Of a stretch of 64,000 nucleotides of DNA, positions 51,684 through 64,000 are shown piece by piece. Location of the stretch: NCBI GenBank assembly GCA_945861275.1, contig CAMATZ010000025.1, positions 20,180 through 84,179 of the forward strand, in the 5' to 3' direction. The notes below the pieces were generated by a model. The model saw nothing but the letters and a program-made list of their open reading frames with translations. It made no database searches and had not been told where the DNA came from. This stretch comes from Bordetella parapertussis. GTDB lineage: Bacteria; Pseudomonadota; Gammaproteobacteria; Burkholderiales; SG8-41. Numbering within the stretch: position 1 is the first letter of the stretch; each line of letters opens with the position of its first letter. A program made the position numbers and the translations under genes.

Positions 51684-52712
51684 TTACTCAACTTTCAGCG
51701 CGCCGGACTTGATCAGCGCACGCAACTGTTGCGCTTGTCCCTTGATGAACTGCTCAAAATGTTCCGCGGTGCCGCCTTCCACATCCAGTCCCAGTTGCTC
51801 GAAGCGCTGTTTCACCTCGGGCAGTTGCAGTATGCGATTCGCCTCGCGATTCAGCTTGTCGACAATCACGCGCGGCACCTTGCCGGTGGTCACCAAACCC
51901 ATCCACAATAAATTATCTGCGCCGGTGATGCCCTGCTCCGCAAACGTCGGCACGTTAGGGATGAGCGCCTGCCGCTTCGGCCCTGCGACACCGAGCATTT
52001 TGATACGGCCGGAGCGGATGAATGGTTCTACCGACGCGGTGGTGGTGAAGAGTCCGTCGATCTGCCCGCCAACCGCATCGGTCAGCGCAGGCGCCGTGCC
52101 CTTATAAGGAACATGGGTGATATTGACGCCGGTCACTGCTTTCAGCGTTTCCAGCGCCGCGTGCGGATTACTGCTGACGCCCGACGAACCCCATGTCACC
52201 TTGCCGGGGTTTGCTTTCGCCCAGGCGATGAGCTCTTTCATGTCGTTCGGTGGAAACTTCGGATTCACGACCGCGACGACTGGCGCGGAACCGATATAAA
52301 TCACAGGCGCAAAATCAGTAAAGGTGTAAGGCGGCTTCTGCCTTAGCAGAATGTTGTTAATACTCGGCCCGGGATTGGTAATCATCAGCGTATAGCCGTC
52401 GGGGGTTGCGCGCGCCACCGTTTCCGCGCCTATACCGCCGCCCGCGCCCGGACGGTTGTCGATGATGAACGGCTGGTTCAGGGCTTCGCTAAACTTCTGT
52501 CCCAGCAGCCGCCCCACAATATCCGTCGATGCGCCCGGCGCGAACGGCACTACCAGCCGCACCGGCTTGTCGGGATAGTTGCCCGGAGCCGGCTGCGCCC
52601 ACAGCATACCGGGTACAAGCGTGAGCAGGCACAGGCAGGCCCGGTTTTGCGCCTTATAGTGCAAAGGGTTGCTGTCGCGGCGCCAATAAACCAATAAGCC
52701 ATTGCTGTTCAT
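51684..52712 (-). CDS. Bug/TctC family substrate-binding protein
   Basis: YPDKPVRLVVPFAPGASTDIVGRLLG, HVPYKGTAPALTDAVGGQID. Confidence 0.94.
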   Translation of the reverse strand: MNSNGLLVYWRRDSNPLHYKAQNRACLCLLTLVPGMLWAQPAPGNYPDKPVRLVVPFAPGASTDIVGRLLGQKFSEALNQPFIIDNRPGAGGGIGAETVARATPDGYTLMITNPGPSINNILLRQKPPYTFTDFAPVIYIGSAPVVAVVNPKFPPNDMKELIAWAKANPGKVTWGSSGVSSNPHAALETLKAVTGVNITHVPYKGTAPALTDAVGGQIDGLFTTTASVEPFIRSGRIKMLGVAGPKRQALIPNVPTFAEQGITGADNLLWMGLVTTGKVPRVIVDKLNREANRILQLPEVKQRFEQLGLDVEGGTAEHFEQFIKGQAQQLRALIKSGALKVE

Positions 52713-52722
52713 TGCATGAAAC

Positions 52723-52977
52723 TCAGTAATGGAAGCGCAATTGGGCGATCAACAGTGCATCACCTTCTACGCGATACACCATGCGATGTTCCTCTGTTAT
52801 GCGCCGTGACCAATACCCCGATAGCGCGTGCTTTAGAGGTTCAGGCTTGCCAACTCCAGTGAAGGGCTCGCGTTGTGTCTCGCGTATCAGCTTGTTAATC
52901 CGTTCAGCCATGCGCCTGTCTTGCTTTTGCCAGTAAATGTAGTCTTCCCATGCCTCATTCGCGAAGACCAGCTTCAC
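52723..52977 (-). CDS. yoeB: YoeB-like toxin (Txe/YoeB family)
   Basis: LVFANEAWEDYIYWQKQDRRMAERINKLIRETQREPFTGVGKPEPLKHALSGYWSRRITEEHRMVYRV. Confidence 0.96.
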   Translation of the reverse strand: MKLVFANEAWEDYIYWQKQDRRMAERINKLIRETQREPFTGVGKPEPLKHALSGYWSRRITEEHRMVYRVEGDALLIAQLRFHY

Positions 52978-53225
52978 TTGAGCAGCTTTCGCACAACACC
53001 TTTGCCGGCGCTCAGTTGTCCGGTCGCTGCCAAAAGGCGTTTGGCGTTAGCGGGTGTACGCAAGAGGTAGGACGTTTCCTCAAGCGCTTTGTAGTCTTCG
53101 AGCGAGAGCATCACCACAGCCTGCTCTCCGTTGCGGGTAATAATCAACGCTTCGTGATCATTACAAACCCGATCCATGGCGCTGGCGAGGTTTGCTCGAA
53201 TTGTCGTGTAGGTAATTGCATCCAT
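52974..53225 (-). CDS. yefM: YefM-like antitoxin
   Basis: MDAITYTTIRANLASAMDRVCNDHEALIITRNGEQAVVMLSLEDYKALEETSYLL; overlaps yoeB by 4 nt. Confidence 0.96.
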   Translation of the reverse strand: MDAITYTTIRANLASAMDRVCNDHEALIITRNGEQAVVMLSLEDYKALEETSYLLRTPANAKRLLAATGQLSAGKGVVRKLLK

Positions 53226-60633: not shown

Positions 60634-61077
60634 TTAGCGCGCGTCGAGCGGGCTGACTACACCGCGGCCCCCTTTGTTGAGCACGGTGCGTGTGAATCAT
60701 GGTGGTCGTGGCGAGCACCGACTGCACTTCCTCACGCGTTAAAACCACCGGCAAGCGTTGCGGCCGCTTCGCTTTAACCACGTTGTCGAGCCACGGTAAT
60801 TCGAGTTTCAAAACCTCGCGATACAAGAACAGAATCCCGGAGAGCGCCTGGTTCTGCGTTGATGCCGAAACTTTGCGCTCGACCGCCAGGTGCGTCAAAA
60901 AGGCCTCCACCTCGGGCGCCCCATCTCGCGCGGGTGCCGCAACCCTTGAAAACGTATGAAAAACCGCACCCAATAGACATACGCATCTTCGGTGCGTATG
61001 CTGTAATGGAGCCGTCGCACTTGATGGCGGAGCTGATCCAGCAATCGAGGCGTGGCGGAAACTGGGGGTGTTTGCAT
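60634..61077 (-). pseudogene. intI: Integron integrase intI, frameshifted and internally deleted
   Basis: N-terminal [42 protein letters not shown], frameshift, [70 protein letters not shown], jump to TTMIHTH, frameshift, VLNKGGRGVVSPLDAR*. Confidence 0.92.
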
Positions 61078-61201: not shown

Positions 61202-61208
61202 GTTAGGT
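61202..61208 (+). other. attI/first-cassette core site GTTAGGT
   Basis: aaGTTAGGTcgc, GTTRRRY; complementary to ACCTAAC at 61870-61876, the end of the first cassette. Confidence 0.75.
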
Positions 61209-61239
61209 CGCTCAATTGCGTTCCAGTCGGAGGGAAGTC

Positions 61240-61848
61240 ATGGAAGAAAAATCTCCATATCACGAAGGTATGCGGCAACTCCAAGATGCCCGCGAAACCA
61301 CCCTGTTGGCAGATCGGCTCGCACAAGTCAGTGCTCGAACTGCGTTCAACGAAGACGACCACGCATTCATCGAACGATCCGCGATGTTCTTCATAGCCAC
61401 AGCTGATGCCCAAGGACGACCCGATTGTTCCTATAAGGGTGGCCTACCTGGCTTTGTCCGCGTAGTCGACGAACAGACCGTTGCCTTTCCTGACTACGAT
61501 GGAAACGGCATGTATCGATCCTGGGGAAACACGTTGGTAAACCCCAGCGTGGGGTTGCTCTTCATTGACTTCGAGAATCCCAAACGCCTTCGCATTAACG
61601 GCTCCGCGAAGATTAGCTTCGACGATCCGCTGTGCAATGAGTACCCCGGCTCGGTACTGATCGTCCGCGTCGTAGCGAAGCGAATATTTGGAAATTGCCC
61701 GCGCTACATTCATAAAATGGCCCTGGTCGAACACTCCGTCTACGCCCCGAGGGTCGGCTACACACCCCCAGTTCCGACATGGAAGACGCGGGAACACTAC
61801 CGGGACGTGCTTCCCGCGCGGGACCGTACGCCCGACGGCGAGAGCTAA
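61240..61848 (+). CDS. Cassette 1: pyridoxamine 5'-phosphate oxidase-family (flavin-binding) protein
   Basis: MFFIATADAQGRPDCSYKGGLPGFVRVVDEQTVAFPDYDGNGMYRSWGN; RBS ggaggga before ATG 61240. Confidence 0.85.
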   Translation: MEEKSPYHEGMRQLQDARETTLLADRLAQVSARTAFNEDDHAFIERSAMFFIATADAQGRPDCSYKGGLPGFVRVVDEQTVAFPDYDGNGMYRSWGNTLVNPSVGLLFIDFENPKRLRINGSAKISFDDPLCNEYPGSVLIVRVVAKRIFGNCPRYIHKMALVEHSVYAPRVGYTPPVPTWKTREHYRDVLPARDRTPDGES

Positions 61849-61869
61849 GGCGAACTTCTTAGTGCAGCG

Positions 61870-61955
61870 ACCTAACTTTAGTTGGTGCGGACGTGCTGGA
61901 AGCGCCGTGCCATAATTCATTTCTGTAGGGCACGCCGCACAACAAAACGTTAGGC
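61870..61955 (+). other. attC site 1 (86 bp)
   Basis: R'' ACCTAAC, R' GTTAGGC; inner arms TTGgTGCGGaCGTGC / GCACGCCGCACAA pair with two unpaired bases. Confidence 0.85.
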
Positions 61956-61991
61956 GTCAATGTGGCAACGCGCCGAAAGATGGGAGGAACC

Positions 61992-62959
61992 ATGGTGCGA
62001 TCAATGGTAAGAGTGATGCGGTATTTCGGGCTCGTGCTCCTAGGATGCGTTTCGACGGCATCGGCTCAGGAGTGGCCGAAACAGAAGCCCGTATCGTTCG
62101 TCGTGGCATTCGGCGCCGGGTCCATTACCGACACGCTCGCGCGGATGGTCGGGCAGAAGCTCTCGGAATCGCTCGGCCAGACCGTCGTCGTGGACAACCG
62201 ACCCGGGGCCGGGGGGAACATCGGTGCACAGCGGGTCCGGAATGCAGCACCCGACGGCTACACGATCCTATGCACAGCACCGCGTACACCGTCAATCCGG
62301 CCCTTTTCCCGAACGCCGGCTACGATCCTTTGAAGGACTTCGTCCCGTTGATCCTGGCCGCCAGCACCCCCAACGCCTTCTCCGTGCACCCGTCGGTGCC
62401 GGCAAGAAACCTTCAGGAGCTGATCAAGCTCTCGCGCCAGCACCCGCTTGCTTACGCCTCTCCCGGCATCGGCACCTCGCCGCACCTTTCGATGGAGCGG
62501 ATCAAGGCCATCGCGAAGATCGACATCACTCACGTGCCGTACCAGCCGGCGCAGGCGGTCAACGCGTTGATCGGCGGCCACGCGCCCGTGCTGTCCATCT
62601 CGGTATCTATACAGCTTCCGCACATCAAAGTCGGAAAAATCCGAGCCCTCGCGGTGACGAGCGCACAGCGCGCCTCCTCCGTGCCAGACGTACCGACCGT
62701 CGCCGAGCAGGGATTCAAGGGCTACGAAGAATTGAACTGGTTCGGCATCTTCGGACCCGCCGGCATGCCGGCCGAGATCGCCGGTCGCCTGAACACCGAG
62801 ATAAACCGGGTTCTGGAGCTGCAAGACATCAGGGACAAGCTCGGCCAACTCGGCCTCGATTTCCGCCGCAACTCGCTCGCGGACTTCGCCGCCTTCATCA
62901 AAGATGAGGTCCCGAAGCAGGCGAAGGCCGTCAAGGACTCCGGCGCGAAGGTTGATTGA
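61992..62959 (+). pseudogene. Cassette 2: Bug/TctC substrate-binding protein gene with a -1 frameshift
   Basis: ORF 61962..62333 (VSFVVAFGAGSITDTLARMVG...APDGYTIL) continues in another frame (HSTAYTVNPALFPNAGYDPLKDFVPL...DSGAKVD*); break near 62270. Confidence 0.85.
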
Positions 62960-62972
62960 GGCAATACGTGCC

Positions 62973-63060
62973 GCCCAACTCCAGGTGGAACGGACGGGCC
63001 GCCAGCGTAGTGGCATCATCAACCGTGATCGCGGCCCGCCGTTCACCAACACGCTGGGGC
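62973..63060 (+). other. attC site 2 (about 88 bp, degenerate R')
   Basis: R'' GCCCAAC; arms GGTGgAACGGaCGGGCCGC (62984-63002) / GCGGCCCGCCGTTCACC (63031-63047) pair with two unpaired bases; R' degenerate (GCTGGGGC). Confidence 0.7.
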
Positions 63061-63303
63061 TGCAGAAAAAGGCTCCGAACGCGAGGTTTGTGCAAGGCCC
63101 ATAAAACGCGACCTCACAGAACGCTCTAGAATCCACGCAAAAATTTTCGGAGGGGTACATGCATACCCAAAATAGAGCAAGAACGGCAAGAGTCGGAGTG
63201 CCCAGGGTTTTTCTACAGCCTCGTTAGGCTTTGACTCAATGTTGGTGGCGGTTGGGTCATAAGCTATGAGAAGAATCTGCCGCCAACGACTCATGAGGAG
63301 GTA

Positions 63304-63720
63304 ATGAATATGGCTAGGATACGTGTTGATCTTGAGAGTGTCCAAGTGACCGAGGGTCAAGGGATTAGTGAGGGAGATTTTGAACTGCGCATCCAGGTGC
63401 GAGAAGGCAGCAACAACATTGTCTGGCCCTCGCTCAATGGAAGTACGAAGGTCGACAAGGGAGGAGCGGCCCAATCAATCGGCCGAGAGGTCGCGACCTA
63501 CACCGTCACATCAGGAACGCTGAGCAAGAGGTTTACGATCGATGTGACTGAGGTCGACAAGGGCACGCTTGGACAGGACGACCAAGGTCAGAGCACGATC
63601 ACCTTCCAACTGAAGCCGAACATGGGACTTTCCACGAATTCCGTGACCATCAGCCTGAAGCGGCCTAACATGAGCTACCGAGGCGAAGTCAAGGTCACTA
63701 TGACGGCCCAGGAGGCCTGA
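63304..63720 (+). CDS. Cassette 3: hypothetical 138-aa protein (predicted beta-rich)
   Basis: MNMARIRVDLESVQVTEGQGISEGDFELRIQV...; between GTTAGGC (63224-63230) and GCCTAAC (63795-63801). Confidence 0.7.
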   Translation: MNMARIRVDLESVQVTEGQGISEGDFELRIQVREGSNNIVWPSLNGSTKVDKGGAAQSIGREVATYTVTSGTLSKRFTIDVTEVDKGTLGQDDQGQSTITFQLKPNMGLSTNSVTISLKRPNMSYRGEVKVTMTAQEA

Positions 63721-63794
63721 GCCCCTAACCTGCGGTGATTCGGTGTTGCAGGCTTGCCTTGTGAATCGGCGAGGCAACAATCGAAAGCAATTTT

Positions 63795-63860
63795 GCCTAA
63801 CAATCGCGTCGAGAAGGACGCGGCGTAAGGCGCCGCGCCCCTCAAGCGAAGCGTTGAGGC
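63795..63860 (+). other. attC site 3 (66 bp)
   Basis: GCCTAACAATCGCG...GGaCGCGGCGtaaggCGCCGCGCC...GCGTTGAGGC: canonical R'', palindromic fold with extrahelical A, slightly degenerate R'. Confidence 0.85.
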
Positions 63861-64000
63861 TGTGCAAAAACCATGGCACGGATATTTCCAATGAAGTTAC
63901 TCGTAAAAAAGTCTCTCAGAACGCTCTACAATCGACGCTTGCATACTCGGGAGGGGTTGAAGGACCCTCGAAAAACATCGCCCTTCGCTCGCGAAGGGGT

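What the first reader, a model, noticed from the sequence alone, without database searches (positions are those of the whole stretch)
61202..64000. Cassette array with three attC-like sites, extending past the window
Core pairs match: GTTAGGT 61202 with ACCTAAC 61870; GTTAGGC 61949 with GCCCAAC 62973 (one G-T); GTTAGGC 63224 with GCCTAAC 63795. Each attC folds with unpaired bases on the left arm (TTGgTGCGGaCGTGC, GGTGgAACGGaCGGGCCGC, GGaCGCGGCG), the extrahelical pattern that orients IntI recombination.
Basis: partly seen in the sequence, partly recalled or inferred. Interest (0 to 1): 0.72.

Follow-up and report, generated by a model that had tools for sequence, protein, structure and literature searches.

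The report
attC-targeting transposable elements in an integron
The cassette array is a real integron remnant, and two of its three recombination sites are each split by a small transposable element that belongs to a widespread, apparently undescribed lineage of bacterial jumping genes which insert almost only into integron cassette sites, at the very triplet that the integron's own recombinase cuts.

Summary
An attC covariance model built without window sequence finds three attC sites: 61870-61955 (41 bits), 62973-63059 (30) and 63795-63860 (44). Beside them lie attI-like sequence and a dead intI (frameshift, ~550-bp internal deletion, catalytic Tyr to His). The window end is a contig end; the array continues on contig C40, joined through a 130-bp overlap.

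A 167-bp element (63056-63222) splits its R' core. A second, 159-bp element (63856 to C40:144) splits attC3 at the same place: GTT|GAGGCTGTGCAAAAA...TTTTTGCACAGCCTC|GTT. Related elements in other beta- and gammaproteobacteria are 158-159-bp MITEs or 1.63-1.88-kb insertion sequences with IS1182-type DDE transposases. Thirty-five two-ended copies have a perfect GTT duplication. In 33 attC sites the element splits R', never R''. The transposases form one fully supported clade; 11 other IS1182 relatives do not hit attC.

IS1111-attC elements and group IIC-attC introns already target attC, so this is a new variant of a known kind: a DDE, IS1182-type lineage with MITEs that inserts at the integrase crossover triplet. 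Recognition through the folded hairpin is inferred. No description was found in open-access literature; ISfinder was not searchable.

The parts
60643..61065 (-). intI pseudogene: frameshift, about 550-bp internal deletion removing most of the catalytic domain, TTMIHTH where the intact C9 copy has TTMIYTH
   Evidence: tblastn and DNA alignment against intact IntI of contig C9; C9 protein is integrase_gron, 470 bits
61100..61208 (+). attI-like region ending in the first core GTTAGGT (61202-61208); similar sequence lies before the cassettes on contig C83
   Evidence: sequence, alignment with C83
61240..61848 (+). cassette 1 gene, PPOX/PNPOx-type flavin-binding protein (202 aa)
   Evidence: Pfam PF01243 E 3.6e-14; NCBIfam PPOX below cut-off
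61870..61955 (+). attC1, intact
   Evidence: R1 41.1 bits, E 4.3e-8
61962..62959 (+). cassette 2 gene, TctC/Bug-type solute-binding protein, broken by a one-base frameshift near 62275
   Evidence: Pfam PF03401 in two frames
62973..63055 (+). attC2, interrupted in its R' core; the other half of the core, GTTAGGC, is at 63223-63229
   Evidence: R1 29.8 bits, E 3.7e-5
63056..63222 (+). 167-bp diverged MITE-like element with imperfect terminal inverted repeats (GGGGCTGCAGAAAAA / GAGGCTGTAGAAAAA), flanked by GCT and GTT
63304..63720 (+). cassette 3 gene, 138-aa protein without a known family
63795..63855 (+). attC3, interrupted in its R' core after GTT
   Evidence: R1 44.0 bits, E 7.8e-9
63856..64000 (+). 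first 145 bp of a 159-bp MITE (terminal repeat GAGGCTGTGCAAAAA); its last 14 bp are at C40:131-144, followed by GTTAGCC

Best explanation
The region is the start of a chromosomal integron whose own integrase gene is dead, with a short cassette array. Two of its attC sites have been hit by non-autonomous members (MITEs) of a lineage of IS1182-type insertion sequences. A DDE transposase of an autonomous relative attacks attC at the GTT of the R' core, the triplet within which IntI exchanges strands, and inserts the element there with a GTT on both sides. Shown by sequence: the insertion position, the GTT duplication, the choice of R' and never R'', the shared terminal repeats of MITE and IS, and a single transposase clade. 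Inferred: that transposase supplied in trans moves the MITE; that the target is read through the attC hairpin or its asymmetry and not only through the short core; and that the upstream attC may stay usable, because GTT plus the first bases of the element (GTTGAGGC) nearly rebuild an R' box, so that the element would travel with the downstream cassette.
For: Three attC sites by covariance model. Inserts with inverted-repeat ends at the R' core of attC2 and attC3, and a third copy at an attC on C83. Same terminal repeats on ISs with IS1182-type transposase. Scan of 85,462 species genomes for the element end: 17 of 25 exact hits followed by GTT or AAC. 35 two-ended copies with GTT on both sides. 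33 attC hits split at R', 0 at R''. Transposases of 30 copies form one clade, SH-aLRT 100, while 11 other IS1182 relatives show neither GTT duplication nor attC. Bare core CGTTAGSC occurs 139 times in this genome, so the core alone does not explain the placement.
Against: No transposition was observed. The only IS copy found in this genome has a stop in its transposase and no attC hit beside it, and a few other copies (L039, L057) lack a recognised attC. The attC2 element is diverged and its flanking triplets are GCT and GTT. Eleven of the 33 split sites were used to build the model. Two of seven tested transposases fall just under the NCBIfam IS1182 cut-off. Long branches separate the attC clade from the outgroup in the tree.
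Confidence: 0.87

Rival explanations
1. The inserts are ORF-less gene cassettes placed between G and TT by IntI, not transposable elements.
For: They lie exactly at the IntI crossover triplet, and ORF-less cassettes are known (PMC8876359).
Against: The units hold no attC of their own; they end in inverted repeats shared with transposase-bearing ISs. IntI should place units at R' in one orientation only, yet the ISs lie in either orientation by subclade.
Confidence: 0.04
2. The elements are site-specific transposons that recognise only a short double-stranded core such as ACGTTRGSC; attC sites are hit simply because they carry it.
For: R' spacers often read ACGTT; the own-genome IS copy sits at CGTTAGCC without a detected attC.
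Against: The core CGTTAGSC occurs 139 times in this genome, far more often than recognised attC sites, yet the three MITEs all lie in attC. R'' read on the other strand also gives GTTRRRY but is never used (0 of 33).
Confidence: 0.25
3. An ordinary cassette array with one unusually long attC and no transposable elements.
For: Three attC sites score well.
Against: The extra length is a discrete element with terminal repeats, and related units occur in other attC sites of this and other genomes.
Confidence: 0.02
4. Assembly artefact: the MITE at the contig end is a misjoin.
For: The contig breaks inside the repeat, and a similar copy exists on C83.
Against: The copy at 63056-63222 and the C83 copy are internal to contigs, and the same arrangement recurs in independent genomes.
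Confidence: 0.03

Closest known systems
IS1111-attC group (ISKpn4, ISPst6; IS110/IS1111 family)
   Same: Insertion sequences that target one end of attC sites of gene cassettes (PMC11187229).
   Different: IS1111 members have a DEDD transposase, subterminal inverted repeats and an RNA-guided target choice (PMC11187229). Here the transposase is IS1182-type (DDE Pfam domains), the inverted repeats are at the very ends, and GTT stands on both sides.
IS1182 family, e.g. IS1272
   Same: Best NCBIfam and Pfam matches; some IS1182 members are said to target palindromes, and IS1272 targets inverted repeats (PMC5678879).
   Different: IS1272 replaces its target stem-loop and leaves no target duplication; this clade keeps the hairpin, inserts at its foot and has GTT on both sides.
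Group IIC-attC introns
   Same: Mobile elements that invade attC sites (PMC8876359).
   Different: Those are retroelement ribozymes; here there are terminal inverted repeats, a DDE transposase and no Rfam intron match.
MITE-like structures flanking a class 1 integron (Gillings et al. 2009, cited in PMC8618304)
   Same: Miniature inverted-repeat elements associated with an integron.
   Different: By its title those flank a whole integron; here they sit inside the attC core of cassettes. That paper itself was not read.

Membership tests
Integron cassette array | attC sites with R''/R' cores and imperfect hairpin with extra bases on one arm | tested here: met
   three hits, 30-44 bits
Integron (complete) | functional adjacent intI | tested here: not met
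   frameshift, large internal deletion, Tyr to His; an intact IntI is on contig C9
IS1182 family | transposase matches the IS1182 model | tested here: inconclusive
   NF033551 is the best model for all seven members tested, five above and two just below the cut-off of 270 bits
IS1182 family | terminal inverted repeats at the very ends | tested here: met
IS1111-attC group | DEDD (IS110/IS1111) transposase with subterminal inverted repeats | tested here: not met
   Pfam DDE_Tnp_1 and DDE_Tnp_1_6 domains, terminal repeats
Group IIC-attC intron | group II intron RNA | tested here: not met
   no Rfam match in the window or in loci L020, L151-L153
MITE | short, non-coding, terminal repeats shared with an autonomous element, target duplication | tested here: met
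   158-159 bp, ends shared with the ISs, GTT on both sides
MITE | mobilised in trans by the partner transposase | not testable with these tools
   needs a transposition assay

The most novel reading that the evidence does not exclude
A DDE transposase lineage that, like IntI, reads the folded attC hairpin and its strand asymmetry, inserts at IntI's crossover triplet and nearly rebuilds an R' box (GTTGAGGC), so that IS and MITE become passengers of gene cassettes. The strictly 158-159-nt MITE, with a conserved core and a terminator-like 3' hairpin, would modulate expression of downstream cassettes.
Probability: 0.3. Interest if true: 0.75.

Novelty: new variant of a known kind. Interest (0 to 1): 0.56.

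Why it matters
attC sites share little sequence, so an insertion sequence confined to them must recognise either their short core in context or their fold. A further attC-targeting mobile lineage, after IS1111-attC and group IIC-attC introns, with a different chemistry, lets attC recognition be compared between unrelated enzymes. It also suggests a route by which transposable elements can ride on gene cassettes and break or remodel cassette arrays in environmental bacteria.

Tried and rejected
Rfam for attC or introns: no match. ORF-less-cassette reading: rejected, no attC in the unit. Short ORF inside the MITE: no Pfam match, and by eye the frame carries a stop in L152 (alignment), so treated as non-coding. 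MITE core as a deletion derivative of the IS: only the terminal repeats match the ISs. Consensus sigma-70 promoter in the C83 MITE: none found. Primary IS1111-attC paper: not held. Literature searches for an IS1182-type or MITE-type element in attC showed no such title or abstract among the listed papers; one search returned no paper.

Full report
What is there. A covariance model R1 was built from 11 attC sites, with the element removed in script; none is from the window and one (L020) is from another contig of the same genome. It finds exactly three strong sites in the 64-kb window: 61870-61955 (41.1 bits), 62973-63059 (29.8) and 63795-63860 (44.0); the next best is 17 bits, E 0.07. Upstream, on the minus strand, is an intI relic. 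Against the intact IntI of contig C9 (integrase_gron, 470 bits) it has a frameshift, lacks about 550 bp that encode most of the catalytic domain, and reads TTMIHTH where C9 has TTMIYTH; that this tyrosine is the catalytic one is from general knowledge of integrases. Cassette 1 encodes a PPOX-type protein, cassette 2 a TctC protein broken by a frameshift, cassette 3 an orphan 138-aa protein.

Beyond the window. The window is G000:C25:20180-84179 and C25 ends at 84179. Its last 130 bases are identical to C40:1-130. On C40 the array goes on with GTTAGCC, a cold-shock/DUF1294 gene, a weak attC candidate (15.6 bits) and a toxin-antitoxin-like pair. The join runs through a repeat that also occurs, 92% identical, on C83, so it is likely but not proven.

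The insertions. attC2 ends ...CACGCT, then 167 bp, then GTTAGGC. attC3 ends ...AGCGTT, then 159 bp, then GTTAGCC on C40. Both inserts have inverted repeats at their ends (GAGGCTGTGCAAAAA or close variants). A third copy on C83 splits another attC at the same place. The same repeat bounds an IS of 1800 bp at C40:9277-11076, flanked by GTT on both sides, whose IS1182-type transposase has an in-frame stop.

Relatives. The repeat occurs in three other genomes of the family. In a scan of 85,462 species genomes for the 18-base end of the element, 17 of 25 loci have a match followed by GTT or AAC; the other 8 are about what chance would give (my arithmetic: 2 x 264e9 / 4^18 = 7.7). Complete elements are either 158-159-bp MITEs or ISs of 1627-1882 bp, with a few other sizes such as 97 and 167 bp. 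With transposase searches over the order and the phylum I collected 35 two-ended copies with GTT on both sides; a few combine neighbouring elements. Most non-GTT pairs in that table are chance pairings of repeat-like matches; seven have GTT on one side and a one-base variant on the other. R1 marks an attC at 33 junctions. In all 33 the element lies in R' directly after the GTT position, never in R''; 22 of the 33 sites were not used to build the model. A Pseudoalteromonas plasmid copy and members from other families of the class also have GTT on both sides.

One lineage. Transposases of 30 attC-associated copies form one clade with SH-aLRT support of 100 against 11 other IS1182 transposases from plasmids (long branches join the two groups, so that split needs care). 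The flanks of those 11 carry neither GTT duplications nor attC hits. IS1182 is the best NCBIfam model for all seven members tested, five above and two just below its cut-off. The transposase points the same way as the cassettes in most copies and the opposite way in the subclade around L077-L086 and in L074.

The MITE. Ten copies align over 159 columns with a single one-base gap and share an internal core (columns about 56-115) that was not found in the ISs compared. A hairpin next to the right repeat, followed by a run of T, shows paired changes on both sides at several pairs, and in the C83 copy the same hairpin is reported as terminator-like. No ORF is conserved (by eye). Its function is unknown; a transcription terminator is plausible.

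Mechanism, shown and inferred. Shown: place, GTT on both sides, R' choice, common ends of IS and MITE, one transposase lineage. Inferred: DDE transposition with 3-bp staggered cuts around GTT; MITE movement in trans; recognition of the attC fold or its asymmetry. The bare core CGTTAGSC occurs 139 times in this genome, whereas the attC model gives 33 hits at E up to 1, so the core alone does not readily explain three of three MITEs in attC; but the own-genome IS copy sits at such a core without a detected attC. IS1272 of the same family is reported to target inverted repeats (PMC5678879).

Known or new. IS1111-type ISKpn4 and ISPst6 target one end of attC (PMC11187229) and group IIC introns invade attC (PMC8876359). 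I found no paper that describes IS1182-type elements or MITEs in attC cores, but subscription journals and ISfinder could not be searched, and of the listed papers only a few were opened. I file it as a new variant of a known kind, attC-targeting mobile elements. As a plain cassette array the original finding would be ordinary; the interest lies in the elements inside its attC sites.

Noticed in passing
L020 (contig C83) 1-2600: A second integron remnant with attI-like sequence similar to the window's, a short intI relic of a few dozen bases, a Ser/Thr kinase-TPR gene and the MITE-split attC.
   Followed up: partly
L011 (contig C9) 8937-11870: An intact IntI gene followed by cassettes with attC sites of 56 and 41 bits; it could act in trans on the window's array.
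   Followed up: partly
G000, contigs C8, C27, C31, C39, C45 and others: 33 attC-model hits at E up to 1 are scattered over the genome, many far from any known intI.
   Followed up: no
L054 3954-4050: A 97-bp element with ends of the GAGGCTGTAGAAAAA type, also at an attC R' core with GTT on both sides; an even shorter MITE of the same lineage.
   Followed up: partly
L151, L152, L153, L087 4068-4225, L095 8-166: Further 158-159-bp elements with GTT on both sides in other genomes; the conserved length and core of those aligned (L151-L153) suggest constraint on the MITE itself.
   Followed up: partly
L077, L078, L079, L080, L081, L083, L086, L074: In these copies the IS lies in the opposite orientation relative to attC, still at R' with GTT on both sides.
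   Followed up: partly
window 52723-53225: Two small minus-strand ORFs that look, by eye only, like a YoeB/YefM-type toxin-antitoxin pair.
   Followed up: no
window 51684-52712: A second TctC-type solute-binding protein gene on the minus strand (by eye), apart from the cassette copy.
   Followed up: no
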